Below are positions 1,946 to 59,445 of a stretch of DNA of 64,000 nucleotides, in pieces. Source of the DNA: Pycnococcus provasolii (taxonomy: Eukaryota; Chlorophyta; Pseudoscourfieldiophyceae; Pseudoscourfieldiales; Pycnococcaceae); NCBI GenBank assembly GCA_938743325.2, contig OW568900.1:124001-188000 (forward strand), given 5' to 3'. The position numbers were made by a program, and so were the translations under genes. How positions within the stretch are numbered: the stretch's first letter is position 1; each line of letters starts with the position of its first letter. The notes below the pieces were generated by a model. That model was given only the letters and a program-made list of their open reading frames with translations, did not search any database and was not told where the DNA came from.

Positions 1946-4900
1946 ATGTCCTCCTCTCTCGGCTCGGGGGCCGTGGACGTCTCGGGGGCCGTGGACGTCT
2001 CGGCCGTGCTTCTCACCCCCTCTGAAGAAGCTTTGGTGAACTCGTCGCCGCTGAAGGGACAGAGACGTAGAGAGGGATTGCCGCACGGCGCGGGAACCAG
2101 CGCGTGGCCTGCGACACCGCGTGACTCTCCTGGGTTAGGCAAACAACCGAACCCAGTCGCCCGTCAAAAAAGTCTCTCGCAGAAGTTCATGAACGTCGTC
2201 TCTGGAAACACAGGCGGAATCCTACCAGGAAGTGGAAGCATGGGAAGCGACTCCGCAGAAACGGCCAGACTTGTCAAGGCGGTGGGAGAAGACGTCGTCA
2301 GCTTCGCGACGCAGGGAGGACTCCTGACGAAGTTCCCGTTCGGAGAAGGGGCCGCGCCAAAGGTGCGATTCTTTCAGGCGTCTGACGACGGAATTTACCT
2401 GCTATGGGGAGACGCGAAGCAGGCTGGTAACCTGCCAAGCAGACTGGCGCTCGCAGAGGTGGAGGCTATCGTGCAAGGCACGCGCACGCATACCTTCAAG
2501 AGGCACGCGGCGCGCGTCAAGCACCCGCAGCTCTGCCTCAGCCTCGTCACGGAGGCGCGCAGCCTTGACCTGCAGGCGGAGACAGAGACGGATTATCGGG
2601 CTTGGCACCGCGCGATGCAGCACCTTGTGAGGCACGCGAGGCAGGGAATCGCGGCGGCGGAACTGTCGGCGACGGATCCGCCGCCGCCGCCGCCATCGAC
2701 AGCGCCTGCACCTGAGTCGACGTCGCCCATCTCGCCGTCGCCAATGGACGCGTCCTTGCCTATGCCCAGTGATAACGAGGCGGCGTCGCCGGAAATGCTC
2801 GAGCCATACCCGCCGTCAACCAAGCAGGAGGTGAGGCACCTGAACGGACGGCCACTCCCAACGCAGCAGCAGCATCGACCTCGACCGCCGGCTGTGCCAC
2901 TCTCCGCCACACCCGCGCAGCGAACGTCGCCTCCCTGGTCCAACAACGCCTCGTTTCGACCACCCGCGCTTGCATTCAGCAACACGCCTCTTGGACAGAC
3001 GGGACACGTGGCCCTCGAGGTGCAGACACCCGCGAACGTGCGCCTGCTCGTGCCATCAGCCCCATCGAGAGAAGAAGATGAGGAGGCTTCCCGTTCCACA
3101 CCCGCCGCCACATCCGCCGCCGCCACATCTGCAGTCACCGGCACTGCGAACGCGAACGCAACTTCGACCACCACCACCACCACCAATACATCCACAGCCG
3201 CCTCCGTAAACGCGGCGGCGGCGGCTGCAGAGCTCTCGGCGCGCCTCGACCAGGAGAGCATGCGAGAGGAGTACGCAGCAGCCGCAAAGGCGCGAGCGGC
3301 TATGGACCATTCGAGGTTGGAGGACGCCGCAAGTGCTGGCGCCATCGTTCCAAGCCAGAATGATCGCGTGCCAGTGTCTGTTCGTGACATCATCCGCGAT
3401 GAGTCCGTGGCACCGTACCAAGCGGCGCGAACGAAGCCTCACCCGATGCACGCCGCAACGCCGTACGCTTGCGTCGACATCTTTCGCAAGGCTAGGCACA
3501 ACCGACACAAGGAGGTGGACGCAATGCTGAAGGAGGGACTCACCCCATATCTCGTCGACGAGAACGGGTCGACGCTGCTTCACATCGCTGCTCAGAACAA
3601 CCATCGGCGCGTTGCGAAGGCCGTGCTCAAGTACAGCGATTTTGCATCCGACCCGCCGTCTCGCGTTTTCATGAATCTCGGCAACTTCCAGGGGCATACT
3701 GCGCTGCACTACTGCTTCGCGTACGGATACATGGAGCTCGGAAATTACCTCATCAGCCTTGGTGCCGAGGAAACGCTCGAAAATCGACACGGCATGACGT
3801 GCTACGATGGCCTCGAGCCAAACGGCGTCGAACCTGCATCGCTGCAGACGCCGGCAATGCGACATAAGCAAATGATCATGAGGCAGCGTCGCATGGCAAA
3901 TGGGCGAGCGGATCCGCCGCGAACCGCAGCAGCAGAGGTGGAACAACCGCTCGCGCTGCCGGCACCTCCGGGAACGAGCTATGGTCGATCCGCGCCCCCT
4001 CCTACCGCACCGCCGCCCACCGCACCGGCATACCACCCGCCATACGCACCACCACCCACCGCACCACCTCCCACCGCGCCGCCGCCAGGTTACGGACACG
4101 ACATGAACGGATACTACCACCAGCAGCAACTCCAGCATTACCCACAACATCACCATCCGCACTATCCTCCCCCGAACCCGTACGCCAATCCGTACGCCAA
4201 TCCATACGGCAACCCGTACGGCGCGCCGCCCGGATGGCATGCGATGCTTGCAGCACCGCCGCCGATGTACGCGCCGCCGCCAGCACAAACGACGTTCGTG
4301 ATGCCTCCGCCGCAAATTGTGTACGCCAATGCACCTGCGGCACCTCCGCAGACGGCGTACATTGACCCGATGACCGGAATGCAAGTTCCGGTGAGCTCGG
4401 CAATGCCGCCACCTCAAACCGCCGCCATGCCACCACCTCAAACCGCCGCGCCGCCGCCGCCGCGCAAGCCACCTGCCACGGCACCCGTGCGCGGTTCGTC
4501 GAATAGCGCGGGATACGATAGCTTGGACAGCAGCTCGAGCGAGGACGACAAGCGCAACGACGAGGCGCGCGCGAAGCGTATATCTAAGCAGGCTGCCGTA
4601 AATCGCCGGAAGCAAGCTTCTCGAGCCCCTCGACCGCAGACGGCAGCCCCCGTCAGCGCGCCATCAAGTGCGCCTTCGAGCCGGGCTGAGATTCTCGTCG
4701 TCTCACGTGACGACCAAGGCGAGCCGGAGTCGTCCGATTGGGATGATGACGACGGTGGCGCGACGTATGCCGCCGCACCGAATGTGCGAGAAGCGCAGCA
4801 TTCGGCGCCGGCTGCAGCATTACCGTCACCACCCGAGCAGTTCGAGCGGACGGCTGCACCACCCTTACCACCGTCACCACCATCACCACAACCGACACAG

Positions 4901-6919
4901 CCACCACAGCCACCACAGCCACCACAGCCACCACAGCCACCAGCAGAGGAGCTTGTGCGGCCAGCTGCGCCATCGCCACCTCCAGAGCCATTGCCACCTC
5001 CAGAGCAGTCGCCGCTGCCACAGCCACAGCCACCGCAGCCACCGCAGCCACATCCGCAAGCGTCTGCGCCACCACCGCCGACACCCAAGCCTCGTGCTTC
5101 CTCCGAACGCACGAATGCACCGCAGGCTCATGCTGCGATGCCACCTGCGTACCATCTGGATGCGACAGACATGTCGGAGAGCGATTTGGAAACACCGGTT
5201 GGTAATCCGTTTGCACTACCCACGGATCGGCTGAAGCCACGCGTGGCAGCTCCTCGCAACGTTCCAGCACTGAATCTTCCAGGCCAAAAGCCACAGGTGG
5301 CCCGTAACCTCAACTCCAAGGATGATGCGACACCATTTTCGTCGCAGGTGCTTCAGCCGCACCCTCCGCCTGCCGTCGACCCTGAGGAGGAGAAGAAGCG
5401 CGCTGCGCGTCTGCTCGTGCAGGCGGCGGCGAAGCGGCAGAAGGAGAAGGAGGTGCTGAAGGAGAAGGAGAAGGAGAAGGAGAAGGAGAAAGAGGCGGAG
5501 GTTGTTCCCGCCTCATCGACAGCTGTGCCGCCGCCTGCCCAACCTCCCGTACCTGGCGGTGCACCACCACCGCCTCCGCCTCCGCCACCACCTCCTCCAC
5601 CGCCTCCGCCACCGCCACCCGGAGGTGGGAAGGGCGCAGCCTCCGACGGACCCGCGCTCAAGCCTCTGCACTGGGCAGCGATGCCTCAACATGCGCTCGA
5701 AAAGACGATTTGGGCCAAGACTTCAGGTGGGGCTGGTGTTCCTGAGCTGGACGTGGGCGAGCTCGAGACGCTCTTCTCCAGCCGCGTGGCCAAGCCAGGA
5801 GGTTCCTCAGCTTCCAATAGAAGTTCTCGTGGCGCGTCGATGTCATCGTCAGCGCCGCCGGCAACGGCACTGCCTCTGCAGCGCGCGAACAACGTGCTCA
5901 TCGTCCTCGGAGGATTGAAATTCGCGAATCCAGACGGAAGTGCGATGCTGCCTACGGCGAAGGTGACGGCGCTTGTGCAGCGGCTGTCGAATGCGGACAC
6001 GTCGAACCTGACTGCCGAGACGCTCGCGAGCGTGCTGAGCGTGCTGCCAACGCGAGAAGACGCAGACTCCGTGCGCGCCTTCCTCGCCGCCGGACGTCCT
6101 CAGGGCCAAGTCGAGGCATTCGTTCTCGCGATGATGGAGGTGCCCCGCGTTCGTGCGAAGACATCTGCGATGCGCTGGCAGGCGGAATTTGCAGAAAAGG
6201 CTCGTGGACTTGAGAGTCGCGTTTCGCCATTCACGGCTTGCTGCGAGGCGCTGACGAGCAGCGACAAGCTCGCACGCATCCTTGAGATTATCCTCGCTCT
6301 GGGCAATATCCTGAATCGCGGAACGAAGAAGCAGGCGAGCGGATTTAAGCTCAGCAGCCTCACCAAACTTTCGGACACCAAGGCGAGCAACAAGAGCACG
6401 ACGCTTCTTCATTACCTCGCAAAGACGGTGGAAGAGAAGAGCAGCGAGCTCCTGGACTTTGCGGACACGCTTCTCAGCTCGCTTGACGCGAACAAGAGTG
6501 TTCGCGTAGCAGACATGCGCGTCGAACTGAAGGAGCTCACCTCCGGCCTCAATCAGCTCGAGCAGGAGCGCGTCGCGTGCGGTGCCGACGACGCCTTCTT
6601 CCAAGGCACGGAGGCATTCTACAGCGGGGCTAGCAAGCGCGTCGCGGATCTCGTTCGTGCTCTCGAGGTGGCGACATCAGCGGGATCGAAGGTGCGCGAG
6701 TACTTTGGCGAGGATAATCCGCAGAAGGGTGAGGCGAGCGAGTGCTTCACGGTTCTTGCGTCGTTCTGCCACGCGTTTGGTAAGGCGGTGAGTGACAACC
6801 GCAATCGCCCCTCCACAAGCGGCGGAAAGAGCGAGCGAGGTGGTGGAAGTGGCGGTGGAAGTGGTGGTAGCGGAAGTAACACCGGCAGATCGTCTGCTCG
6901 CAGTGCCTCGGCACGTTGA
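1946..6919 (+). CDS. Formin with PH domain, ankyrin repeats, FH1 and FH2
   Basis: This 1657-residue protein is a probable actin nucleator and elongator. Domains in order are: a PH-like domain at about 120-232 (VRFFQASDDGIYLLWG to DYRAWHRAMQHL); a Ser/Thr/Ala-rich linker; two or three ankyrin repeats at about 505-630 (NGSTLLHIAAQNNH, GHTALHYCFAYGY); a very Pro-rich stretch with QPPQPP and TAPPP runs at about 660-1100; a Lys/Glu helix near 1148-1187; an FH1 poly-Pro block at about 1207-1227; an FH2 domain at about 1232-1610 starting LKPLHWAAM; and a Gly/Ser tail. FH2 binds actin barbed ends and FH1 recruits profilin-actin. The PH domain could target the protein to phosphoinositides (inference). 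The start is the first ATG after an AT-rich leader. A single uninterrupted exon of this size is notable. Confidence 0.9.
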   Translation: MSSSLGSGAVDVSGAVDVSAVLLTPSEEALVNSSPLKGQRRREGLPHGAGTSAWPATPRDSPGLGKQPNPVARQKSLSQKFMNVVSGNTGGILPGSGSMGSDSAETARLVKAVGEDVVSFATQGGLLTKFPFGEGAAPKVRFFQASDDGIYLLWGDAKQAGNLPSRLALAEVEAIVQGTRTHTFKRHAARVKHPQLCLSLVTEARSLDLQAETETDYRAWHRAMQHLVRHARQGIAAAELSATDPPPPPPSTAPAPESTSPISPSPMDASLPMPSDNEAASPEMLEPYPPSTKQEVRHLNGRPLPTQQQHRPRPPAVPLSATPAQRTSPPWSNNASFRPPALAFSNTPLGQTGHVALEVQTPANVRLLVPSAPSREEDEEASRSTPAATSAAATSAVTGTANANATSTTTTTTNTSTAASVNAAAAAAELSARLDQESMREEYAAAAKARAAMDHSRLEDAASAGAIVPSQNDRVPVSVRDIIRDESVAPYQAARTKPHPMHAATPYACVDIFRKARHNRHKEVDAMLKEGLTPYLVDENGSTLLHIAAQNNHRRVAKAVLKYSDFASDPPSRVFMNLGNFQGHTALHYCFAYGYMELGNYLISLGAEETLENRHGMTCYDGLEPNGVEPASLQTPAMRHKQMIMRQRRMANGRADPPRTAAAEVEQPLALPAPPGTSYGRSAPPPTAPPPTAPAYHPPYAPPPTAPPPTAPPPGYGHDMNGYYHQQQLQHYPQHHHPHYPPPNPYANPYANPYGNPYGAPPGWHAMLAAPPPMYAPPPAQTTFVMPPPQIVYANAPAAPPQTAYIDPMTGMQVPVSSAMPPPQTAAMPPPQTAAPPPPRKPPATAPVRGSSNSAGYDSLDSSSSEDDKRNDEARAKRISKQAAVNRRKQASRAPRPQTAAPVSAPSSAPSSRAEILVVSRDDQGEPESSDWDDDDGGATYAAAPNVREAQHSAPAAALPSPPEQFERTAAPPLPPSPPSPQPTQPPQPPQPPQPPQPPAEELVRPAAPSPPPEPLPPPEQSPLPQPQPPQPPQPHPQASAPPPPTPKPRASSERTNAPQAHAAMPPAYHLDATDMSESDLETPVGNPFALPTDRLKPRVAAPRNVPALNLPGQKPQVARNLNSKDDATPFSSQVLQPHPPPAVDPEEEKKRAARLLVQAAAKRQKEKEVLKEKEKEKEKEKEAEVVPASSTAVPPPAQPPVPGGAPPPPPPPPPPPPPPPPPPPGGGKGAASDGPALKPLHWAAMPQHALEKTIWAKTSGGAGVPELDVGELETLFSSRVAKPGGSSASNRSSRGASMSSSAPPATALPLQRANNVLIVLGGLKFANPDGSAMLPTAKVTALVQRLSNADTSNLTAETLASVLSVLPTREDADSVRAFLAAGRPQGQVEAFVLAMMEVPRVRAKTSAMRWQAEFAEKARGLESRVSPFTACCEALTSSDKLARILEIILALGNILNRGTKKQASGFKLSSLTKLSDTKASNKSTTLLHYLAKTVEEKSSELLDFADTLLSSLDANKSVRVADMRVELKELTSGLNQLEQERVACGADDAFFQGTEAFYSGASKRVADLVRALEVATSAGSKVREYFGEDNPQKGEASECFTVLASFCHAFGKAVSDNRNRPSTSGGKSERGGGSGGGSGGSGSNTGRSSARSASAR

Positions 6920-19256: not shown

Positions 19257-22200
19257 ATGGCTATCCGTGTGTTGTGGACAGGCTCGGACAACTCCGTCAA
19301 CAACAACAAACACACCGTCGCGCTGCCTAACGCGCTCATTGAAGAAGGCGACGACGCGGCGACGTGGTCACCCGGACCCGTATCGGAAGAGAAGAAGAAA
19401 CCACACCAACTCGTCATGGGTGACGTCAGTGCACCAGAGAGCAACAGCGTCGCAGTCAGCGAGCAGCAGCAGCCGGAGTTCCTTCGGAAAAGGTCGTTCG
19501 TCGACGAAAACGGCATGGAGCTGCCAACGCGCACCAACAACCACGACATGGTGTCGAGAGTAAGCATAGACAGCACAGCCTCGGTGGAGTCGTCGCACCC
19601 AGGCAAAAAGCCAAAACGCCAAAGTGGCCTCGTGGGCGCGGCAAGGCGGCGCACGTCCATCAAGGATGGCTCCGACACGGAGAGCTTGAAGAAGATCAAG
19701 GCGAACCTCATGCAACAGCGCAAGAAGCGCAACAGCGTCGCAACGCTCTTCGAGGTGTCGGCGATCGACCGGCCCGAGTGGAAAAAACAGCTGCACGAGG
19801 CCATCGAAGGCGCTTACATCTCGACTTTCATGACCATGATCACCATCTGGGCGCTGTTCGGCGACGACATTCGCCTACTGGGCACGGAGAAGGAGGCCGA
19901 CACGGGCTTCGAGGCGGTGACGATCCTCTGCCTCATCTGCTTCAGTCTCGAGCTCATCGCGCTGTGCCTGTCGAAGCCCGGGTACAGCCTTGGCTTTTAC
20001 TTCTGGCTCGACTTCGTCGCAACCTTGTCGCTCATCCTCGACATCAAGGCTGTCTACGACTCGTTCTTCGGCGGAGAGGGCGACGACGGCGGCGAGGGTG
20101 ACGACGTGGCACTCGCCAAGACGGGGCGAACCGGACGCGCGGGCTCGAAGGCTGGGCGCATCGTGCGCCTCGTCCGCCTCGTGCGCATCGTCAAGCTGTA
20201 CAAGCAGTACCAGCAGCGTCGCGAGGCGCAGAGCCGGGGCGAGGATCACGTGATCGAGCTCGACGACGAGGAGGAGGAGCTCGGCGAGGAGAGCCGCGTG
20301 GGGCAGAAGCTCTCGGACATGATCACGCGCAAGGTGATCATCCTCGTGCTCGCGATGATCTTCCTCCTGCCCATATTCGACCTCGAGGGCGGGTACCTCA
20401 GCAGCTCGCCAGCCATCACGACGACGGAGTTCGGCGCGGGCTCCATTGACATCTTGCACAGCCAGTACCTTTCGAACGTCGAGCAGGACCTGTACAACGC
20501 GAGCGCGGCGAAGGTGTACGAAGACGACGCGTACGTCACGACGGCTCTCTCGTCTGCGACGGACAAGTTCGTGGATTTGACGAGAGACGGCATGAGCCAC
20601 CGGGACCTGTACTACCTGAAGATTGGCGGCTGGGCGCGCATGAGCAAGATCAAGGAGCTGCGAAGGGACGAAAAGCAGTCGGTGTCTGCGAGATCACCCG
20701 CGCCGTCGGTCAAGTACTGCTCGGAAAGCTGCCTCGGCTTCCCGGAAATGCGCGATGCAACTCCTGCCAACGCCAACTGCGCCAAGGCGTGCGGATGGTG
20801 TTTCGAAGGTACTAAGGAGGCGGACCAGAGCACGTGCCAGACGAAATGCTTGGCGGATGCCGGCGTACCCAATGCTGACTGCGACAGGTATTGTAGCCAC
20901 TGCACGATTGTCACGCTTGCACGCTTCGACATGCAGGACGAGAGCCGCCTGCAGGCACTTCTCAACATCTTCCGGACGATCTTCATTTGCATAGTCCTTG
21001 GCGCTGGTGCGATGGCATTCTCGAAAGATGCGAACGAGCTAGTGCTCGCGCCCATCGAAAAGATGGTCAAGTACGTGAAGGACATGAGTGAAAACCCTCT
21101 CGGGGCTGGCAAGAGTGGCAAGGTCTCGCGCCCCTCTACGGAGAACTTAGAGCATAGCAATCTTGAGACACGCGTCCTCGAGACGTCCATCGCCAAGATC
21201 TGCAGCCTGCTTGCGCTCGGCTTTGGCGATGCTGGCGCGGAGATTATCAGTGAGAACATGAAAAATGGCGGCGATCTCGACCCGATGGTTCCGGGTAAAA
21301 AGATGGTTGCCATTTTCGGATTCTGCGACATTCGCCAGTTCACGGACACCACGGAAGTGCTGCAGGAGGGCATCATGGAGTACGTGAACACGATTGGAAA
21401 GATCGTTCACCAGGAGGTGGCTTTGCACGCTGGATCGGCGAACAAAAATATTGGCGACGCATTCTTGCTCGTTTGGAAATTCGACAAGATGATCACAGTT
21501 GAGGATCTCGAGAACCCGCAAAATCTCAAGGGTGAGAAGCGTCTCGAGGTGGAGCGCGTCGCCGACAAGGCACTTGCGAGCTTCATTACGATCGTCTCGT
21601 GCCTAAAGAAGAGCGCGAAGCTGAAGGATTACCGCGGCAACGCCAAGCTGAATGAGCGCATGCCAAACTTCCGCACGAAGATGGGCTTTGGACTTCACGT
21701 CGGCTGGGCGATTGAGGGTGCAATTGGGTCGGAGTACAAGGTGGATGCGTCCTACCTATCCCCGAACGTGAACATGGCGTCCCGCCTCGAGGCGGCGACG
21801 AAGCAGTTCCGCTCGACCATTCTCATCTCGGAAGACTTTGCCTCCATCCTTAGCCCGGATGTGAAGCGCAAGTGCCGCCAGATTGACTGCGTGACCGTCA
21901 AGGGTTCCATTAAGCCCATGGGACTGTTCACATTTGACGTCGACGATCAGAAGATCCCCGAGGCTGACATTTCAGGAGGGTTCTACACGACGGCTGACGA
22001 GGAGACGTGCAGCTTCGATTTGGACGAGAAGTATCGCGCGGAGTTCGAGGATCATCCTGATATTACACGTGTTTGGGCCGTGAATGACACATACTTGCGA
22101 AGATTCGAGGAAGGGTACAAGGCATACTCGGACGGAAATTGGGCATTGGCAAAGCAGATTGTCACCGAGTGCCAAAAACGCAAGGATGTGCTCGGCAATG

Positions 22201-22304
22201 ACACGGAGGACGGACCTTCAACAACGTTGCTTGAGGTGATGGAATCTTACAACTTCCAGGCACCCGACGGTTGGAATGGTTTCCGTGAATTGACAGAGAA
22301 GTAA
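19257..22304 (+). CDS. Adenylyl cyclase fused to a voltage-sensor-like membrane region
   Basis: The 1015-residue protein probably makes cAMP at the membrane. After a charged N-terminus, residues about 174-320 hold four hydrophobic helices. The last is an S4-like segment, GRIVRLVRLVRIVKLYKQ, with an Arg/Lys every third residue. A further membrane helix (about 360-380), a Cys-rich lumenal or extracellular part (CSESCLG to CSHC, about 485-555) and another helix (about 575-595) lead to a class III cyclase domain at about 680-880. Catalytic features seen are FCDIRQFTD (first metal Asp), NIGDAFLLVW (second metal Asp) and the transition-state Asn and Arg in SPNVNMASRLE. The YKVDASYLSPNVN block with Asp favours ATP over GTP and closely resembles alveolate channel-cyclases. 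The C-terminus is helical. Confidence 0.85.
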   Translation: MAIRVLWTGSDNSVNNNKHTVALPNALIEEGDDAATWSPGPVSEEKKKPHQLVMGDVSAPESNSVAVSEQQQPEFLRKRSFVDENGMELPTRTNNHDMVSRVSIDSTASVESSHPGKKPKRQSGLVGAARRRTSIKDGSDTESLKKIKANLMQQRKKRNSVATLFEVSAIDRPEWKKQLHEAIEGAYISTFMTMITIWALFGDDIRLLGTEKEADTGFEAVTILCLICFSLELIALCLSKPGYSLGFYFWLDFVATLSLILDIKAVYDSFFGGEGDDGGEGDDVALAKTGRTGRAGSKAGRIVRLVRLVRIVKLYKQYQQRREAQSRGEDHVIELDDEEEELGEESRVGQKLSDMITRKVIILVLAMIFLLPIFDLEGGYLSSSPAITTTEFGAGSIDILHSQYLSNVEQDLYNASAAKVYEDDAYVTTALSSATDKFVDLTRDGMSHRDLYYLKIGGWARMSKIKELRRDEKQSVSARSPAPSVKYCSESCLGFPEMRDATPANANCAKACGWCFEGTKEADQSTCQTKCLADAGVPNADCDRYCSHCTIVTLARFDMQDESRLQALLNIFRTIFICIVLGAGAMAFSKDANELVLAPIEKMVKYVKDMSENPLGAGKSGKVSRPSTENLEHSNLETRVLETSIAKICSLLALGFGDAGAEIISENMKNGGDLDPMVPGKKMVAIFGFCDIRQFTDTTEVLQEGIMEYVNTIGKIVHQEVALHAGSANKNIGDAFLLVWKFDKMITVEDLENPQNLKGEKRLEVERVADKALASFITIVSCLKKSAKLKDYRGNAKLNERMPNFRTKMGFGLHVGWAIEGAIGSEYKVDASYLSPNVNMASRLEAATKQFRSTILISEDFASILSPDVKRKCRQIDCVTVKGSIKPMGLFTFDVDDQKIPEADISGGFYTTADEETCSFDLDEKYRAEFEDHPDITRVWAVNDTYLRRFEEGYKAYSDGNWALAKQIVTECQKRKDVLGNDTEDGPSTTLLEVMESYNFQAPDGWNGFRELTEK

Positions 22305-40956: not shown

Positions 40957-43900
40957 TTAGTTTCGGTTCTCCTTTTCCTCCTCCATGTCAGCCTTCGCAA
41001 TCTCGCGCATCTTCATCGTGTGTTCGCGCAGCCACTTGGGATCCGCCGATCGAATGGATTTCGGGAAGGGGCCCTGAAGAGGACGAGGGCGGCTGCGTAG
41101 CTCCTCAGCCTTACGAAGCAGCTCAACTTCGCGGCGCTTCTTCTCCGCGATGCGCTTTTCCAAGCTTGCTCGCGATTCCCGTGCCATCGTGCCGCTTGCA
41201 GCCATCTTCATCTTTTGCTCAAATTTGCTGAGGAGGAATCGCTTACGCACCATCGCAAAGAATGTGTCAACCTCGAGCAAGTTCTCCTCCTTCGCCCTGT
41301 TGAGAAATTTTTCCAGTAGCACGGCGACGATCAGGTTGAGCAGAACGTAGCGTGCAAGGATCAGAAAGCTCGAAAAGTAGGCCATTGACAGAATGTCGTC
41401 AAAGGGACTTGGACACGGTCGGCCCACCTTGCATTTTGCCGCGCTGCGCATCATCATGCTCCACTCGTCGCCAGTGAAGACGCGCCATAGCACAATGAGC
41501 GAGTTCCCAAAACCTTCGAACTTGAACCGATCACTCAAGCGAGGGTGCTCGTGCTCCTCGAGACGGCCAGTACCAAAGAGATTCATGCCAAGAATGGCAT
41601 ACATGAAGATGAGCAAGAATAGCAGACTGCTAACGTTTCCAATCGATGGAAGTGCGGTGATTGCCGTCTCGAAGAGAGCCCGAAGGCCTTTCGCACGCTT
41701 GAGAAGGCGGAATAGCCTACCGATGCGGAATATCCGGAAGACTGTCAGCCCCGCACCCACCGTGATGAAGAATTCGGGTAAATTCACCACAATAAGGAAT
41801 AGGTCGAAGCGATTCCACGAGCTCCTCTGGTACTGTTCCCATCCTAGCCCGATGAGCTTGAGTACCGCCTCCAGCATGAAGACACCGTTGAAGGCGAAGT
41901 TGGTAATTCCCAGGACCATTTCAAGCTCGCGATCCATACCCTTAAACGTTACCGCCATGCACGCGGTGTTAACCAAAATGCAAACGACGATGAAGTAGTC
42001 GAAGGGCGTCGACGTGACGAGCTTAAAAAAAGTACGTCGGAGCGCCATCCTCGGCGCGATCAGCTTCGGCTCAACTTGTAGACGGTAGTACTGCGCCATT
42101 TTTTCCACGATCTGCTCCTTACGCCGCCGCTCCATCGCTTCAGCCTGCATCGACGTCTCAAGGGCACTCGAACCACCCTTGGAGGCTACCTTGAGGTAGT
42201 GGTCGACGAGTGTTCCGATGAACATGCACGGCCAGAATATGCTACCAAGGATGACGAAGCTAATGACGCTGAAACTACCAAGAACCGCGTTGGTGTTTCG
42301 CTGAGGAATCATGTCAACTCCCTTCGCATCCATCGCAGCGTGCGCTACGTCAACCCAATTGTCGAGAGTCGTGAGCACGAAAAGGCTCTTTAGGCTCTCC
42401 CCAATGTGATCAAAGTTCAGGTATGGGCTAAACCAGTGACGCTCGACCAGCGTGCCGTGCTCCTCGAGCTCGCAGACGTCGCCCTCGTCCAGGTTGCAGA
42501 CGAACTTCACACCTGTGGGCACACAAGCGTCCTTGGCGAGAACCTGCACGCCATCAATGACACTATCGTTGCACCGTCCGAGGCGTCCATTGAACATCTG
42601 CGTCATCATGATGGCGAATACAATGGTCTGAAAAATGCCGAACATGACAATGTTGATGATTGACGGGAATGCATGGATGACCGTGTTCACGACTATCTGC
42701 ATGCCTTCGATGCGCGAAATCATCCGGAGTGGACGAAGAACGCGTAAGAGCCTGAAAACACGCACGATGCTGAGCTCATCGCTTCCCGTGATGCTAGCTA
42801 GACTCGTGCAGACGATGATTCCGTCAAGCTGGTTCCAACCATTTTGCCAGTAGGAACCTTCGTGCATGCAAAAGCCGTTTGCCACCATCTTCAAAAGCAT
42901 CTCTACCGTGTAAATGCACGTGAATACCATGTCGCAGTACACGAGCACTTGCTTAAGCGCGCTCTTCTTGTCAAGTCGTGGATCGTCGATAGCAAGGAAT
43001 ACGCCGCCGATGCAAATGAGCGTTAGGATTAGGCCTTCAAACGATTTGTGAGAAACGACAGCCTTGCACATGCGTCGAAAACGATTGCCCTCGCTGAAAA
43101 GCATAAAGCTGTTCTTTCGATACCTCAGTGTCTTATACGTATTGCCGATGAAACTGTCCCTGGCCATCGACTTTACCGCGGCAAACCTCTGTGCGAGATA
43201 ACCTGAATCAGTTTTGAAGAGCGAGTTCCGCGCCTTGTACATGGAGCTGCGTCGGCGACTAAAGCTGCGACGAATTTGGCTTGGAGACGGACTCGATTTC
43301 GAGGAGTCGGCGCCTGAGAAGCTTCCCATATTTCTCATGGAAAAGCTTGACATCGACGAAGCCATTTGTTGCAGCGAAACTGAAAGCGAAGATCTTCTTT
43401 GCCGACGCTGATCTTCCTCCTCAGTGGTCATGCCGTCATTGAGCGTAAACCTCCCTATTCCACCGCTGTTAGATTGATCTCTGCTCTCTTTGACTGGCGA
43501 GCCGGATTGCCAAGGCGTGTTCCGCGCTTTTTCCGCCAGGCGACGTTCGACGTCTTCCTTGGTCGCTCGCGATCGAACGCGATTTGCCTGACCTAGCAAC
43601 ATGCTATCCGTCGCTTCGTCATCAGCGTCAGGGTAAATGGTCGACTCGGTCACCGGCCCGGGTGGTCGGTTGCCGACCATCCAGCTCTTTCGCACGTCAA
43701 GCACCTCGATATCAAATACGAGGTGTTTCCCAATGACGACATTGCCGTCGGCGTCCTTTAAGCCGGCAGCGTATTCCGCGTGGCAGAAAAGATTTGCCTT
43801 GCAGCCCATGGGCAGCGACGGAAGAGCAACCTCCATGCCCTCGACAATATGGTCGCCAGCCGATGCTCCGCCGAAAGTGAATTTGAACGGGTTCTCAACG

Positions 43901-46900
43901 CCGCGGCGAAGGAGCACTGGCCCTTCTCCCCCCGTGCCATCGTCGATGTTATCGTCCCCGCCCGTGTACTCTCGAACCACCATTGCCATCGTGATGTCGT
44001 CACCAAACTCAGGCATGGGTGCATTTGGACCCTGCGGGCCGTATTGGTAAATGCTGAGCTGCACACAGTCATCCTCCGTTAGACTAATGGGCTCTTCCGC
44101 TAACGAAGGGCCACTTACGTCGCTTCCCATGCTCCGTGCAGAAAACCCCCCTTTGGAAGTCCGAGCTCGTGCTGAACCGGGCGATCGACGAGGTGTTGGA
44201 ATTCCACCTCGCCCAGGCGTCAAATTTGGGAAGGCCTGACGCGGTGTCGGGCGTTTAGGCGTATATCGTCCTGCTTCATCGTCTCGACGCGTGGATACTC
44301 CGCCACCGCCAGCTCCATAACTGGGCTGCTGCTGTTGAACGAATGCCTCGACTGCATTCATGGTCGTCGCCGATGTCGCAGGTGATGATGCGATTGCCGC
44401 AGGCGCACCCCAAGCATCCGCTGGCTGGGCTGGCGGTGGGTACATTGCATCCACCATTCCCATCAGACCACCACCACCCGTATCAGTACGACCACCACCG
44501 CTGTCCGCGGGAACCAGTGACGTGCGCCGCGCCATTGCTTGCGTCGGGAAAAAGGCGTCTCTACTGGCTTCGTCTTGAGCCAAGCTGCGGCGCCGTTCTT
44601 CCTCCTCGTGGATCGAAGTCATCGACGGAACGAACTTCAGCCCGCCTTTGCGGCTCGAGTAGCTGCCCCCATACTCACCTTTTGGGCTCGCGGAAGCTTG
44701 TCTCAAGAATTGCGTTTTCGGTTGCTCCGGAGATTCTCGAACTCGCTCTCGTGCAGGGGTAGGCGCGTCATGCGCCTCGTCGATGTGTTCCTTCAGAGAA
44801 TCGGAACTATCGCTATGCGAGCTGGATATCACAGTCCGCCCCGAACTTCTGCCTGACTTCGCCGCTCTTCCTGACCCCCTTCCCGATGCACCCTGCGGCG
44901 GGCTACCACCCTGAGACCCGAATGACGCATGCTTGGCACCACCTTGCAGTGACATACGTCGCTTGCTCTTGCGCGGGCTTATTTCGATCTTAGCTTTGCC
45001 GTATCCAAACGCCTCCATTGGATAGAGGCTCATGGGTTTCAGAAATGACCCGTAGTCAGCGTCATCTGCAGCTTCGTCTGCGTTCGTAAGCGCAGTCAGT
45101 CCTTCAGGAACGGGCGGAATATCCAGCTCCTCTTCCTCGCTCTCCTCTGCCTTCTTCGCCGCTTCTTCAGGGTCCGTCAGATCTTCCTCGTCCACATCGC
45201 CAACGCCATACTTTTCGTCGATGCTTACGAGAAATATTTTCATCTTGGCTACGTCTCGGAGGGCATCGGGCATCAGCTTCATTTTGACTGGCTTGACGCG
45301 CGAATCGCGAACTGTCTTTCTTTGCGATTTCTCCTCCTCCGGCAATTTTAGGGTAGTCCTGCTGCGCTCATCACTACTCTTTGGCTGAAGAGCTTTGCGA
45401 GGCGAGCCTTTCGGCGACTTGTTTTCCTCGACCTGAGGCTTCTCTTCATCAGGTGATTGCGTCTGCGTGATGACAATCGCAAGAAACAGCGTCAGGAGAG
45501 TGAGGTGACCAAGGAAGATCCAGCTTAGAAAATAAAGACTCGCGGCATCCCCTGCCGCCTGCATACCGCGGTGCATGACGTAGATCCAGTTGTTCGCTGT
45601 AAGCATCTCCAGGACCGTCATCGCCGCCTCCGGAAGGCTATTGAAGTTGCGGCGCCCATCTGGATCAAATGTTCCGACATTCGCGGGCACTCTCGGAACA
45701 GGGTCACCGGCTGTATAATTTGAATGTGGCAGGGCATCAAAAGCCGGCTGACCTCCGAACACCTGCATTCCCAGAAGGCAGAAGATGAAGATGAACACCA
45801 TGGTAAGCGCGACAAAGTCCGAGAGCGCTGTTGCTCCGCGAATCACCATGAGCATCGTTTTGCGTAGGCTGTCAATCTTCTGCAGGGCACGCAGACTTCG
45901 AAGGATGCGAAGGAGACGAAAACTGCGCAGTGCACTGAGTCCTGAGTTTGGAACATTCGCGTACAGCTCAGCCACAGAGACGAGCACGCAGATGCCGTCG
46001 AGGTTATTTGAGGCGGATGACCAGTAGTCGTACACACCCTCGCCGGCGAGCTTCATCAGGAACTCTATGCTGAAGCAAACCGTGAACATCAGGTTGATGA
46101 GACCGAACCAGTGTTTCATGTCATCGCTCATACCGTAGTGCTCCATCGCCATTGTCACGGTATTGGCGATGATGAGCGAGGTGATCACTCTCTCGACGGG
46201 TGGACTGGCGACGAAGGTTTTGAAGTAGAGCGCGAATACGTGCCGATCCTGATCCGAGCGCGGTATCACCGTCATTCCCATCGCGAGCTTCATGCGTGTC
46301 CACATCGACACGCTTCTCGCCTCCGCAAGCTCCTGCTCGAGGATGGCGCTGACCTGAGCGAACTTCCCAACAAGCACGACTACTAGCAGCTTGACGGCGA
46401 AGTACGAGCCGGTGAGCACGAGCAGGAGGTAAAATGGAATGGCGATGTCCCCGGACGCGGCCATGGTGACCACGTAGAGCTTTGACCACGACTTCAGCAC
46501 GACGACGCGCATGATGGAGAGGCTTGCCCACAGGAAGTTGTCGAACGACGTGAATCCGTTGTCAGGATTCATGCCCACGTCGCGGCACTCGCTACCGGTT
46601 GGGCACGTGCCGTACCCGGTTACGCTCGACGCGCACACCGACTCGCGCATGCCAGGCACGATGCTTCCGATGACCTCGTCTTGGAACTGCGGCTCAACAA
46701 CGACGCACCTGCTCGTCAGCTTTCCCATGAACATTTGCACGCCAACGATTCCAAACACGAGCAGAAGCCACACGAGCATGAGCGCGACGTCTCTTAGCAG
46801 TGGCAGCGACTCCATGAGTGTGGCGACGAGAACACGCAGGCCGGGTAGAGCTTTGACGGCGCGCAGTGGCCGCATCGCACGGAAGGCGCGCAGGCCGGAC

Positions 46901-47646
46901 ACGTTTCCTCCTGCGCCGACGTACTGCAGGTACGCAGTCACGACGCACAGCATGTCGAGGCAGTTCCACGCGGAGTTGATGTACGCCTTTGGCCCGAAGA
47001 ACAGGCAGTGCGAGACTGTTTTGAGTATGAACTCGGCGGTGAACACGAAGGTGAATACGAACTCTGCGCCGTCTACCGCCGTCCGACACGTGTCTTTGCA
47101 TCCGGCGTCGTCCATGGCAAGGAATGCGCAGTTGGCGAGGATGCATACGAGGATAACTTTGTCGAACCACGCGCTGATGACGACTTTCACGCAGAACTGT
47201 CTCAGCGGGTTTTCCGGCGAGATGAACAAGTACGCGTTATTTCCCGTGCTAATGAGCTCGAGACGGTGCTTAAGCGTCATCGCCTGGAACGATTTATCAT
47301 CACCTTCACCGGAGTCACCAGGGTCACCACCGGAGTCACCACCACCATCATCAAAGGACGAATCATCCAAGGCCTCTGAAGAAACACCACCACCGTCCAC
47401 AGCAAGACCTCTCCGCGTATCGTCACGGTATCCTCTGACACCCCCTGAACCGTCACCCCCTGAAACACCCCCACCTGAAAGACTTAAATCATCCGCACGC
47501 GCTAACAGCATGTTCAACGATGAGTCACCACCACCATAGGAATAATCTTCATCAGGATGGTAAGGGTGAACCGCCGATGACGACATGGACGACGGATGCG
47601 GCCGTGACCCATTTCTCATATTTGCCATGGACGCCATGGACGCCAT
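40957..47646 (-). CDS. Four-domain voltage-gated cation channel with FKBP-like domain in the II-III linker
   Basis: From the Met at 47646 the 2229-residue product has four six-helix repeats (24 membrane helices), an Nav/Cav-like plan. S4 segments carry regular Arg: I AFRAMRPLRAVKALPGLR (about 247-275), II SFRLLRILRSLRALQ (about 567), III VFRLLRVLRPLRMISR (about 1625), IV FRIFRIGRLFRLLKR (about 1970). Pore loops read VVLKSW (I), LTANNW (II), TTLDNW (III) and FTGDEW (IV). The filter position is therefore K/N/D/D, unlike EEEE, DEKA or EEKE. In the long II-III linker, residues about 1191-1322 match the FKBP fold (FGDDITMAMVVREYTGG, NPFKFTFG, HIVEGMEVALP, AEYAAG, FDIEVLDV). The linkers are Ser/Lys-rich. 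A poly-MASM N-terminus starts the protein. Confidence 0.85.
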   Translation of the reverse strand: MASMASMANMRNGSRPHPSSMSSSAVHPYHPDEDYSYGGGDSSLNMLLARADDLSLSGGGVSGGDGSGGVRGYRDDTRRGLAVDGGGVSSEALDDSSFDDGGGDSGGDPGDSGEGDDKSFQAMTLKHRLELISTGNNAYLFISPENPLRQFCVKVVISAWFDKVILVCILANCAFLAMDDAGCKDTCRTAVDGAEFVFTFVFTAEFILKTVSHCLFFGPKAYINSAWNCLDMLCVVTAYLQYVGAGGNVSGLRAFRAMRPLRAVKALPGLRVLVATLMESLPLLRDVALMLVWLLLVFGIVGVQMFMGKLTSRCVVVEPQFQDEVIGSIVPGMRESVCASSVTGYGTCPTGSECRDVGMNPDNGFTSFDNFLWASLSIMRVVVLKSWSKLYVVTMAASGDIAIPFYLLLVLTGSYFAVKLLVVVLVGKFAQVSAILEQELAEARSVSMWTRMKLAMGMTVIPRSDQDRHVFALYFKTFVASPPVERVITSLIIANTVTMAMEHYGMSDDMKHWFGLINLMFTVCFSIEFLMKLAGEGVYDYWSSASNNLDGICVLVSVAELYANVPNSGLSALRSFRLLRILRSLRALQKIDSLRKTMLMVIRGATALSDFVALTMVFIFIFCLLGMQVFGGQPAFDALPHSNYTAGDPVPRVPANVGTFDPDGRRNFNSLPEAAMTVLEMLTANNWIYVMHRGMQAAGDAASLYFLSWIFLGHLTLLTLFLAIVITQTQSPDEEKPQVEENKSPKGSPRKALQPKSSDERSRTTLKLPEEEKSQRKTVRDSRVKPVKMKLMPDALRDVAKMKIFLVSIDEKYGVGDVDEEDLTDPEEAAKKAEESEEEELDIPPVPEGLTALTNADEAADDADYGSFLKPMSLYPMEAFGYGKAKIEISPRKSKRRMSLQGGAKHASFGSQGGSPPQGASGRGSGRAAKSGRSSGRTVISSSHSDSSDSLKEHIDEAHDAPTPARERVRESPEQPKTQFLRQASASPKGEYGGSYSSRKGGLKFVPSMTSIHEEEERRRSLAQDEASRDAFFPTQAMARRTSLVPADSGGGRTDTGGGGLMGMVDAMYPPPAQPADAWGAPAAIASSPATSATTMNAVEAFVQQQQPSYGAGGGGVSTRRDDEAGRYTPKRPTPRQAFPNLTPGRGGIPTPRRSPGSARARTSKGGFSARSMGSDVSGPSLAEEPISLTEDDCVQLSIYQYGPQGPNAPMPEFGDDITMAMVVREYTGGDDNIDDGTGGEGPVLLRRGVENPFKFTFGGASAGDHIVEGMEVALPSLPMGCKANLFCHAEYAAGLKDADGNVVIGKHLVFDIEVLDVRKSWMVGNRPPGPVTESTIYPDADDEATDSMLLGQANRVRSRATKEDVERRLAEKARNTPWQSGSPVKESRDQSNSGGIGRFTLNDGMTTEEEDQRRQRRSSLSVSLQQMASSMSSFSMRNMGSFSGADSSKSSPSPSQIRRSFSRRRSSMYKARNSLFKTDSGYLAQRFAAVKSMARDSFIGNTYKTLRYRKNSFMLFSEGNRFRRMCKAVVSHKSFEGLILTLICIGGVFLAIDDPRLDKKSALKQVLVYCDMVFTCIYTVEMLLKMVANGFCMHEGSYWQNGWNQLDGIIVCTSLASITGSDELSIVRVFRLLRVLRPLRMISRIEGMQIVVNTVIHAFPSIINIVMFGIFQTIVFAIMMTQMFNGRLGRCNDSVIDGVQVLAKDACVPTGVKFVCNLDEGDVCELEEHGTLVERHWFSPYLNFDHIGESLKSLFVLTTLDNWVDVAHAAMDAKGVDMIPQRNTNAVLGSFSVISFVILGSIFWPCMFIGTLVDHYLKVASKGGSSALETSMQAEAMERRRKEQIVEKMAQYYRLQVEPKLIAPRMALRRTFFKLVTSTPFDYFIVVCILVNTACMAVTFKGMDRELEMVLGITNFAFNGVFMLEAVLKLIGLGWEQYQRSSWNRFDLFLIVVNLPEFFITVGAGLTVFRIFRIGRLFRLLKRAKGLRALFETAITALPSIGNVSSLLFLLIFMYAILGMNLFGTGRLEEHEHPRLSDRFKFEGFGNSLIVLWRVFTGDEWSMMMRSAAKCKVGRPCPSPFDDILSMAYFSSFLILARYVLLNLIVAVLLEKFLNRAKEENLLEVDTFFAMVRKRFLLSKFEQKMKMAASGTMARESRASLEKRIAEKKRREVELLRKAEELRSRPRPLQGPFPKSIRSADPKWLREHTMKMREIAKADMEEEKENRN

Positions 47647-56883: not shown

Positions 56884-59445
56884 ATGCAGCCCGCCGTTGG
56901 TGACGCGGAGGCTGCGCAGAACATCAAGGCGCGCAACATGCGACGCAGCCTCATCCAGGTGGTGGAAAATGGCGAGTACGGTGAAGACGAGTACAGAAGA
57001 AAGTCTTCTTCGTCGGACGACGCGACGACAACGACAAACAGCGGACTGGACGCGAACAACCACGACCTTGCCGACGCCAAAGCTTCCGATACCGCGCTTC
57101 CGATACCGAGCTCGCGCGGCCTCGAGCTCGCGGACGAGGAGCTGTCGTTCAACGTCACACTGCCGTGGTACATCATATGCGCGGAGAGCGTCTTCAAAAG
57201 CCGCTGGGACTGGTTTATCATCGGACTCGTCGTGTACAACAGCGCCTTAATCCCGTGGTCGATGGCGTTCACCACGAGCGACCTGCCAGGCTTGAGGGTG
57301 CTCGACTACATCATCGACAGCGTGTTCTTCGTGGACATCATTTTGAACTTCTGCCACGCGTACATCGACAAGCACGGCGTCGAGGTGGTGGACCCGTTGT
57401 TGGTGCGCAAGAACTATTTGAACACGTGGTTCACCGTCGACTTTTTGGGCTTCTTCCCGTTCGAGGTGATTTTGATCACGTTCAGCGTCGAGATGCAGGT
57501 GGGGCTGTTCAACCTCTTCAAGCTCCCGCGCCTGCTGCGACTCGGGCGGCTGATGAAGAAGCTCGACCAGCTCTCCGGCGCCAACGTCCTGCGCATCCTC
57601 AAGCTCATGTTCTTCTTCGCGCTCTTCGCGCACTGGATCGCGTGCATCTGGTTCTATCTAGGCCGCTTCCAGGGCGAGGGCAACCGCTGGACGGGCGCGG
57701 TGTGGCTCGTCAAAGACAACCTGTGCCAGACCATCAAGGGGCCAGGCGCGGGCGAGAACGACGCCGGCACGCTGTACTCGCGCTACGGGCACCCCGCGTG
57801 CATCTACGAGGTGGACTCCTTCTCCACCGACACCAAGGAGTGGTACGTCGACTCCTTCACGTCCGTCACCACGCCCACCGGAGAGACGGTCGTCATCACG
57901 CCGGAGGCGGACGCGGGCACGGTCTACGTCGCGTCCTTCTACTTCGCGCTCACGACGCTCACCACCGTCGGGTACGGCGACATCACGCCAGGCACCAACA
58001 CGGAGCGCATGTTCGCCATCTTCGTCATGCTCGTTGGCGCCATCGTGTACGCGTCCATATTCGGTAACGTCATGGCGCTCATCCAGAGCTTCGATCAGAT
58101 GAACGCGCTGCACACGGAGAAGGTGGACCGCCTCAAGGCGTTCGCGCAGTTCTACGACATCAAGCCGTTGACGTACGAGAAGATGGTCGTGTACATGGAC
58201 AAGACGTACTTCCAGACGCAGGGATTCGACTCAACCGAGATTCTCCGCGAATTCCCGCACGCGTTCCGCGGGGAAATCCTGATGGAGATGCACGCCGAAT
58301 TCATCAAAATGCTGCGCAGCGCGACCCCGTACCTCGCGCGGTCGGAGATGAAGCTCTTCGTCGGTGCTCTAATAAGTAATTTGCATCCGCAGGTGGTGCT
58401 CGAGGGCGACGACATCGTGCGCGTGGGTGAGGTAGGCCACGAGATGTACTTCATTCGCCGTGGGATTGTGGAGATAAAAAGCGAGCCACGCAAAGACGTA
58501 GACCGAAACAAGTTTCTCGCTCGCATCAAAAAGGGAATAAGCAACTGGGCAAAGGCGTCCAACAAGCGCGCGGCAAAATCGCCAGAGTCGCGGAAATCTG
58601 GAGAGAACGAGCGTGCCGGCGACGAGAATAATAATGACGAGGTGGTTGAGTGCTTTGACTCGCATATCATGGGCCTTGTCGAGGGCGCAAATCCCGACAC
58701 CAAGGCGGAGGATATCGCCGAAAAGCTCGACAAGTCGGTCACGATGCTAATGGGCCCCGGCGAGCACTTCGGCGAAGTTACGCTTTTCACGGAGGGGCGA
58801 CGGCAGAGCAGCGTGAGCGCCAAGACATTCTGTGAACTCTTCTCCTTGGACCAGAACTCCTTCAGAGCACTTGAGCGAGACTACTCTGAGGAAGTTGACA
58901 CGATGAAGAAGTTCGCCGTCGCGCGTATGGAGGCTAAGGCACGCCGCTATGCCGTCTCAAGCAACCCTGAATTTGCGGAGCCAACGGAAGCGGATGTCGA
59001 GAGGGAGGTGACGAGCATGTCAAAGTCTTGGAAGACACGAAAGCGCGGCAGCATCTTTGATCCAGATCGCGGGCTAGCACCCGAATCTTCATCCACCGCA
59101 GTACCACCACAAATCACATCTATCGCAGATGCAGCCTCAATGCTGCTGGAACGTGCAAAGTCTGCAGACGACGCCGAACCTTCCGCAGATGCACCCCAGG
59201 TGGCCCATTCGCCACTGGACGATTCCGCGATGGAACGTGCGCTCGCGCCAGTACGCGAACGTGTGGCAATATTGGAAAACCAGCTCGCTTCCGTCTCAAA
59301 AGCTCTCGCGGATGTGTCGAAGTCGGTTGGCGAGACGAAAGAAGCTCAGCAGGCGGGTCAAGAGCGCATCGCGTACAAGCTCGACACGCTGCTTTCCTTC
59401 TACGAGCCGGGTAGACTAAGCCCCGTGACATTAGAGGGGTTGTAA
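56884..59445 (+). CDS. EAG/AKT-like voltage-gated K+ channel with cyclic nucleotide-binding domain
   Basis: From the ATG at 56884 the product is 853 residues. It has S1-S6 with an S4 FKLPRLLRLGRLMKKL, the filter TTVGYGD, and a C-linker plus cyclic-nucleotide-binding domain. The binding cassette reads FGEVTLF, then GRRQSSV: the Glu and Arg needed for cNMP phosphate and ribose contacts are present, unlike EAG-type channels where they are lost. The domain is split by an insertion of about 75 residues between two of its strands (RKDVDRNKFLARIKK to TMLMGPGEH), rich in Lys/Glu/Asn. After the domain come an acidic tail and a coiled-coil-like end (ERVAILENQLASVSKALADVSKS). It should be a cAMP/cGMP-modulated K+ channel. 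An upstream candidate exon is noted separately. Confidence 0.85.
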   Translation: MQPAVGDAEAAQNIKARNMRRSLIQVVENGEYGEDEYRRKSSSSDDATTTTNSGLDANNHDLADAKASDTALPIPSSRGLELADEELSFNVTLPWYIICAESVFKSRWDWFIIGLVVYNSALIPWSMAFTTSDLPGLRVLDYIIDSVFFVDIILNFCHAYIDKHGVEVVDPLLVRKNYLNTWFTVDFLGFFPFEVILITFSVEMQVGLFNLFKLPRLLRLGRLMKKLDQLSGANVLRILKLMFFFALFAHWIACIWFYLGRFQGEGNRWTGAVWLVKDNLCQTIKGPGAGENDAGTLYSRYGHPACIYEVDSFSTDTKEWYVDSFTSVTTPTGETVVITPEADAGTVYVASFYFALTTLTTVGYGDITPGTNTERMFAIFVMLVGAIVYASIFGNVMALIQSFDQMNALHTEKVDRLKAFAQFYDIKPLTYEKMVVYMDKTYFQTQGFDSTEILREFPHAFRGEILMEMHAEFIKMLRSATPYLARSEMKLFVGALISNLHPQVVLEGDDIVRVGEVGHEMYFIRRGIVEIKSEPRKDVDRNKFLARIKKGISNWAKASNKRAAKSPESRKSGENERAGDENNNDEVVECFDSHIMGLVEGANPDTKAEDIAEKLDKSVTMLMGPGEHFGEVTLFTEGRRQSSVSAKTFCELFSLDQNSFRALERDYSEEVDTMKKFAVARMEAKARRYAVSSNPEFAEPTEADVEREVTSMSKSWKTRKRGSIFDPDRGLAPESSSTAVPPQITSIADAASMLLERAKSADDAEPSADAPQVAHSPLDDSAMERALAPVRERVAILENQLASVSKALADVSKSVGETKEAQQAGQERIAYKLDTLLSFYEPGRLSPVTLEGL

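What the first reader, a model, noticed from the sequence alone, without database searches (positions are those of the whole stretch)
43680..44075. FKBP-like domain inserted in the II-III linker of a four-domain voltage-gated channel
Residues about 1191-1322 of the channel read through the FKBP fold in order: REYTGG, NPFKFTFG, IVEGMEVALP, AEYAAG, and an HLVFDIEVLDV end. FKBP12-type proteins bind ryanodine and IP3 receptors in trans; an FKBP fold built into a Cav/Nav-type channel is an architecture I do not know to be described. Several residues needed for prolyl isomerase catalysis (the FD pair, the Trp at the pocket base, the second Tyr of DYAYG) appear changed, so it may be a structural or ligand-sensing module rather than an enzyme.
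Basis: partly seen in the sequence, partly recalled or inferred. Interest (0 to 1): 0.85.

Follow-up and report, generated by a model that had tools for sequence, protein, structure and literature searches.

The report
FKBP-like domain inside algal ion channel
A marine green alga carries a voltage-gated ion channel with a protein-binding domain of the FKBP (immunophilin) fold built into one of its internal loops; animals attach such proteins to other channels as separate parts, so a built-in, probably non-catalytic copy would be an unusual way to regulate a channel, but what it does is untested.

Summary
Window 40957-47646(-) is one uninterrupted 2229-codon frame for a four-domain voltage-gated cation channel of Pycnococcus provasolii. 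Residues about 1191-1318 of its 801-residue II-III linker are a divergent FKBP fold: Pfam FKBP_C E=7e-5 on the isolated piece (below cut-off on the whole protein), FKBP profile 24.0 bits against at most 7.7 in 2000 shuffles, hhalign probability 93.7. An AlphaFold model on an FKBP alignment is FKBP-like (partly circular); the single-sequence model is uninformative. A second allele has the same architecture. Pocket positions Trp59 and Tyr82 are Met and Ala and no Phe-Asp pair is left, so a non-catalytic recognition module is likelier than an enzyme. Of 129 channel sequences examined only this channel and its second allele have it. The channel belongs to a clade whose named members are green algae, not to Cav or Nav proper; its filter reads K/N/D/D. 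Eleven residues after the FKBP domain comes GPVTE, a linker motif of 12 of 15 clade members. I found no description of the architecture in the paper listings seen. Best mechanism (inferred): a tethered, catalytically dead FKBP docking a partner or the channel's own linker. Transcript evidence is indirect; optional splicing-out is not excluded.

The parts
40957..47646 (-). coding sequence of the four-domain voltage-gated channel, 2229 codons plus stop, no intron needed
   Evidence: four PF00520 stretches, 640 bits
46351..47172 (-). transmembrane domain I (Ion_trans); S4 RAFRAMRPLRAVK; filter residue Lys385
45454..46200 (-). transmembrane domain II; filter residue Asn685
43054..45456 (-). II-III linker, 801 residues, mostly poor in hydrophobic residues (disordered-looking) apart from the FKBP island
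45205..45240 (-). KIFLVSIDEKYG segment, recognisable early in the linker of several relatives (P0003, P0004, P0005, P0008 by the same pattern)
44179..44262 (-). cluster of five Ser/Thr-Pro sites (residues 1129-1156) just before the FKBP domain
43693..44076 (-). FKBP-like domain, residues 1191-1318
43699..43896 (-). stretch matched by Pfam FKBP_C (profile 32-94)
43645..43659 (-). GPVTE linker motif (residues 1330-1334); GPV[TM]E is shared by 12 of 15 clade channels
43588..44118 (-). possible in-frame optional intron (531 nt, GTAAGT ... CAG) that would remove the FKBP domain and the GPVTE motif; unproven
42187..43050 (-). transmembrane domain III; filter residue Asp1762
41290..42009 (-). transmembrane domain IV; filter residue Asp2060

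Best explanation
A green-algal four-domain voltage-gated cation channel has gained an FKBP domain in its cytosolic II-III linker. The domain keeps the fold but has lost key residues of the prolyl-isomerase pocket, so it most likely works as a tethered recognition module: it docks a partner protein, or a Ser/Thr-Pro-rich stretch of the channel's own linker, next to the conserved GPVTE motif, and so positions or tunes the channel. Shown: the single open frame, the FKBP homology, the position between domains II and III, the changes at Trp59 and Tyr82, presence in two alleles, absence from the other channels examined. Inferred: lack of enzyme activity, binding role, effect on gating or placement.
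Against: No functional data. Missing pocket residues do not prove lack of activity: position 59 varies among FKBPs (recalled). The two alleles say little about selection, because outside the N-terminal 130 residues the whole protein has only 6 differences. The window's channel sits on a long branch (1.04), so relaxed constraint is possible. The first half of the domain is poorly matched, and the good structure model used an FKBP alignment, so it is not independent.
Confidence: 0.5

Rival explanations
1. The domain is still a working prolyl isomerase that flips prolines in the channel's own linker, changing gating slowly.
For: Several hydrophobic pocket positions are kept or conservatively changed (Phe46, Phe48 and Phe99 kept, Val55 to Ile, Ile56 to Val); five of the linker's Ser/Thr-Pro sites cluster at 1129-1156; prolyl isomerisation controls activation kinetics of the SthK channel (PMC7744796, listing with title and start of abstract only).
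Against: Trp59 to Met, Tyr82 to Ala, FD pair absent.
Confidence: 0.15
2. The domain is a neutral or decaying insertion in a permissive disordered linker, with no important role.
For: Found in one species only among the sequences examined; 22-32% identity to the 41 bacterial FKBPs aligned; long channel branch; linker length in the clade ranges from 320 to 2275 residues.
Against: The fold signature is still recognisable, the frame is open and present in two alleles.
Confidence: 0.2
3. The domain senses a small ligand (FK506-like or a metabolite) and couples it to the channel.
For: FKBP pockets bind macrolides (recalled); several hydrophobic pocket residues remain.
Against: Residues that contact FK506 and rapamycin in FKBP12 (Asp37, Trp59, Tyr82; recalled) are changed, though the residue standing at 37 depends on the alignment; no ligand known.
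Confidence: 0.07
4. The segment is an intron, or an optional exitron, so that the mature channel lacks the FKBP domain in all or some transcripts.
For: A GTAAGT donor-like site at 44118 and an in-frame CAG at 43588 flank it, 531 nt. GTAAGT is rare in the open frames counted (2 in 73,398 bases).
Against: The segment codes for a recognisable fold in frame, with coding-like base composition (GC by codon position 0.68/0.38/0.65). The public P. provasolii protein P0002 includes it; P0002 is probably from NIES-2893 (inferred), whose gene models used RNA-seq, 98.4% of predicted coding sequences being mapped by at least five reads (PMC8209157, section read); reads for this gene were not seen. No strong pyrimidine tract before the CAG (read by eye).
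Confidence: 0.08

Closest known systems
FKBP12-type domains (PF00254)
   Same: order of motifs, profile-profile match over 97 columns, modelled fold
   Different: 22-32% identity to 41 bacterial FKBPs; Trp59, Tyr82 and the FD pair not kept; embedded in a channel
FKBP38 (FKBP8)
   Different: a separate membrane-anchored protein (recalled), not part of a channel; 14% identity over the superposition
Ryanodine receptor with FKBP12 or FKBP12.6
   Same: an FKBP fold on a cation channel
   Different: bound in trans to a different channel family; here covalently in cis in a four-domain channel
Prasinophyte four-domain channels with a positive filter residue (WSC XXIX of the 2018 survey PMC5824947; passages and one section read)
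   Same: four-domain green-algal channels with a positive charge in the filter; the Arg-bearing members of the clade seen here may be these (inferred)
   Different: they carry Arg or His, this one Lys; the word FKBP does not occur in that paper's main text
Dualchrome DUC1 of P. provasolii (PMC8209157; start of abstract, passages and one section)
   Same: an unusual domain fusion in the same species
   Different: a photoreceptor, not a channel

Membership tests
FKBP_C domain family (PF00254), fold membership | profile match above the curated cut-off | tested here: met
   23.5 bits against 21.1 on the 170-aa piece, but 18.4 on the full protein, below the cut-off; 24.3, over the cut-off, in the genome search
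FKBP_C domain family (PF00254), fold membership | full-length FKBP fold | tested here: inconclusive
   hhalign 97 columns, probability 93.7; AlphaFold with FKBP alignment pLDDT 67.9, pTM 0.63, FKBP-type matches in the 50 rows shown, partly circular; single-sequence model pLDDT 34.6, no FKBP in the 50 rows shown of 77
Canonical FKBP prolyl isomerase | pocket Trp59 and Tyr82 (FKBP12 numbering, recalled) | tested here: not met
   Met1271 and Ala1294
Canonical FKBP prolyl isomerase | Phe36-Asp37 pair | tested here: not met
   no FD; the aligned residues are Gly-Pro or Gly-Glu, so a Glu at 37 is possible
Canonical FKBP prolyl isomerase | isomerase activity or macrolide binding | not testable with these tools
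   needs purified protein
[quoted passage not shown]
   four PF00520 stretches
[quoted passage not shown]
   all four domains
Cav calcium channel proper | E/E/E/E or E/E/D/D filter | tested here: not met
   K385/N685/D1762/D2060 (the domain II column printed is one residue after the filter position)
Nav sodium channel proper | D/E/K/A filter | tested here: not met
   K/N/D/D
Cav or Nav proper | groups with animal Cav or Nav in a tree | tested here: not met
   in a 16-row clade, SH-aLRT 100, whose named members are green algae (9 rows unnamed), apart from the five comparison rows P0033, P0052, P0060, P0072 and P0073 (quick tree of 41 rows, no bootstrap)

The most novel reading that the evidence does not exclude
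A four-domain voltage-gated channel with a built-in, catalytically dead FKBP as a cis-acting regulator, possibly switched in or out by in-frame splicing of a 531-nt exitron, and working beside a green-algal channel motif (PGPVTE) that also occurs in a polycystin-like protein and in a ChAPs-family (exomer-type) trafficking adaptor of the same alga, which hints at a shared sorting or docking partner.
Probability: 0.3. Interest if true: 0.72.

Novelty: new variant of a known kind. Interest (0 to 1): 0.52.

Why it matters
FKBPs are known as separable partners of ryanodine receptors. A four-domain channel that carries the fold covalently would show that the same module has been attached to a channel in cis in another lineage, and gives a single gene in which FKBP-channel coupling can be tested by deleting one domain. 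It also points to the long, little-studied II-III linkers of green-algal channels as places where a regulatory module and a conserved short motif sit.

Tried and rejected
Tried without result: the isolated domain as a protein query (12 candidates, none at E up to 10); the linker region within full-length proteins (1 hit of 185 candidates, the same species); AlphaFold without an alignment; NCBIfam (nothing for the whole protein, E=0.13 for the piece); base composition and codon bias as a splice test (the FKBP stretch scores +0.09 bits per codon, between the transmembrane domains at 0.16-0.31, on which the score was trained, and the other linker parts at -0.06 to -0.12; weak support only). GTAAGT counts as a splice test were inconclusive (2 on the coding strand, 4 on the reverse, in 73,398 bases of open frames). 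One search compared the window piece with an alignment containing itself and is circular; I do not use it. One search covered the window for the GPVME spelling of the motif (0 matches), not for its own GPVTE, and tells nothing.

Rejected: assembly artefact (two alleles, 37 differing alignment positions, 20 of them gaps, same architecture); chance similarity; a family-wide feature of algal channels (127 of 129 channel sequences lack a match at E up to 1). The 129 are the window's protein, the 120 rows listed of 1828 hits, and 8 channel loci of the same genome, two of which (L024, L028) repeat listed proteins.

Rows left out: the tree used 41 rows and left out P0002, P0014, P0023, L031 and the rows P0034-P0121 other than P0052, P0060, P0072 and P0073. 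The alignment A1 used 41 of 80 fetched bacterial FKBP loci. The motif count of 12 of 15 leaves out L024, which repeats P0006, and P0002, the second allele.
Full report
What was checked. The finding names residues about 1191-1322 of a channel on the minus strand at 43680-44075. The frame is open from Met at 47646 to the stop at 40957, 2229 codons. Pfam gives four Ion_trans stretches, at window 46351-47172, 45454-46200, 42187-43050 and 41290-42009, so the segment lies in the II-III linker, 801 residues long by alignment.

Is it an FKBP fold? Pfam FKBP_C matches the isolated piece at 23.5 bits, E=7.3e-5, cut-off 21.1, but the whole protein only at 18.4 bits, below the cut-off. In the PDB the best sequence match is an FKBP-type isomerase at E=2.1e-4, and the 60 rows shown of 91 are named as FKBPs, peptidyl-prolyl isomerases or fusions with FKBP. 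A profile from 88 FKBPs (8 of the same genome, 80 bacterial; window not included) gives 24.0 bits; the best of 2000 shuffles gave 7.7. Profile-profile alignment to the same set covers 97 columns, probability 93.7, score 45.2; the best of 60 shuffles gave 19.3; segments that do not overlap the domain gave at most 14.5, and two that overlap only its first part gave 11.8 and 15.9. Of 53 positions at least 90% conserved in 41 bacterial FKBPs the window keeps 17 (shuffled mean 4.3, max 11 of 301); this last comparison uses alignment A1, which was made with the window's sequence in it and so favours it a little.

Active site. Aligned to the alga's own FKBP12-like protein and others, Trp59 is Met1271 and Tyr82 is Ala1294 in both alignments; Phe46, Phe48 and Phe99 are kept, Val55 and Ile56 are Ile and Val. 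Tyr26 matches Tyr1227, but the strand before it is about five residues too long, so this is less sure. The Phe36-Asp37 pair is absent; the residues in its place are Gly-Pro or Gly-Glu. FKBP12 numbering and the role of these residues are recalled, apart from passages of PMC3940039 on Trp59 at the base of the cleft.

Organism and second allele. The closest protein is named as a voltage-gated cation channel of Pycnococcus provasolii. The window's genome (32.3 Mb, 46 contigs) fits the published CCAP190/2 assembly (32.2 Mb, 44 chromosomal pseudomolecules and two organelle genomes; PMC11130579, start of abstract in listing); that identity is inferred. The two alleles differ at 37 alignment positions (20 gaps), 31 of them in the N-terminal 130 residues and one in the FKBP domain. 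P0002 is probably from NIES-2893 (inferred), whose gene models were built with RNA-seq (PMC8209157, section read); I did not see reads for this gene.

The channel. In a quick 41-row tree it falls in a 16-row clade (SH-aLRT 100) whose seven named rows are green algae (Volvox, Myrmecia and P. provasolii, including paralogues L024/P0006 and L029) and whose other nine rows are unnamed; the animal rows P0033, P0052, P0060 and P0072, the unplaced eukaryote row P0073 and a second clade with Pedinophyceae and Cymbomonas lie outside. Its own branch is long (1.04). The filter reads K/N/D/D; clade relatives have Q, R, E, D or S in domain I, mostly A or S in domain II, and Asp in domains III and IV where covered (the domain II column printed there is one residue past the filter position). 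Positive filter residues (Arg or His) are known from Micromonas and Ostreococcus channels (PMC5824947, section read). All four S4 segments carry regular Arg/Lys.

How widespread? Of 129 channel sequences examined with the FKBP profile, only the window's protein and its second allele match at E up to 1; 127 do not (next best E 2.6). The 129 hold the 120 rows listed of 1828 database hits, so more distant channels were not examined. A region-specific search against 5.8 billion proteins found only the same species, but needs shared five-residue words.

The linker. It is low in hydrophobic residues (0.14-0.23 in the 65-residue windows, except 0.31 beside domain III) with an island of 0.31-0.40 at the FKBP domain. 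Eleven residues after the domain comes GPVTE. GPV[TM]E occurs in the II-III linker of 12 of 15 clade members (shuffles: mean 0.026, max 1 in 500), missing in the Volvox and two Myrmecia rows, and in no sequence outside the clade among the 129. As a DNA pattern for PGPV(T/M/I)E it occurs 6 times in the genome, against 3 for the reversed control pattern, so the number alone is only weakly above chance. What is telling is where the six lie: three clade channels; one large frame with a Polycystin domain (E=4.1e-6); one large frame of the ChAPs family (Chs5p-Arf1p-binding proteins, E=2e-21), which in yeast are cargo adaptors of the exomer (recalled); and one 40-codon frame that is probably chance. 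A shared sorting or docking partner is a guess worth testing.

Splicing. A GTAAGT donor-like site at 44118 and an in-frame CAG ending at 43588 would remove 177 codons with the FKBP domain and the motif. The genome looks intron-poor (14 of 28 Arf-family matches span at least 150 of 174 positions in one frame), but one Arf-like gene shows an intron with GTACGT and CACAG (read by eye). Optional removal is not excluded; constant removal is unlikely because the segment codes for a recognisable fold in frame.

Mechanism. I think it most likely that the domain is a tethered, non-catalytic recognition module. Shown: position, fold signature, loss of pocket residues. Inferred: binding role, partner, effect on gating or placement. 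The enzyme, neutral-insertion, ligand-sensor and intron readings are given as rivals.

Novelty. Searches of open-licence papers listed 15 of 17,407, 15 of 291, 15 of 180 and 8 of 34 papers; none of the listed titles and abstract starts describes an FKBP domain inside a voltage-gated channel. Subscription papers are not held. I score it as a new variant of a known kind: a known channel superfamily with a known fold inserted where, to my knowledge, it has not been described.

Re-reading the calls corrected the non-overlap score (14.5, not 15.9), the wording of the paper searches and of the Arf count, and added on the other motif-bearing proteins.

Noticed in passing
43645-43662 (-), and II-III linkers of 12 of 15 clade channels: A short motif, (P)GPV[TM]E followed mostly by A or S, is shared by the II-III linkers of this channel clade. 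In the genome its DNA pattern has 6 sites (control 3): three clade channels, a polycystin-domain protein, a ChAPs-family adaptor and one short frame. A possible docking or sorting motif.
   Followed up: partly
46492-46494 (-) and the other P-loops: The selectivity filter reads K/N/D/D, with lysine in domain I; relatives in the clade have Q, R, E, D or S there. Calcium selectivity is doubtful.
   Followed up: partly
19257-22301 (+): A frame of 1015 codons joins a half Ion_trans match (E=2.9e-6, profile 6-114 of 241, voltage-sensor-like) to a nucleotide cyclase catalytic domain (Guanylate_cyc E=2.4e-8): a second channel-type fusion in the same window.
   Followed up: no
56884-59442 (+): An ion channel with a cyclic-nucleotide-binding domain (Ion_trans plus cNMP_binding), so the window holds three channel-related genes.
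   Followed up: no
43588-44118 (-): GTAAGT and an in-frame CAG bracket the FKBP domain and the GPVTE motif (531 nt): a candidate exitron.
   Followed up: partly
L131 (around G000:C9:546667) and L132 (around G000:C19:36156): PGPVTEA in a polycystin-domain protein and in a ChAPs-family (Chs5p-Arf1p-binding) protein with TPR matches, that is in a membrane protein and in a putative trafficking adaptor.
   Followed up: partly
1946-6916 (+): A large frame combines an ankyrin repeat region with a formin FH2 domain.
   Followed up: no
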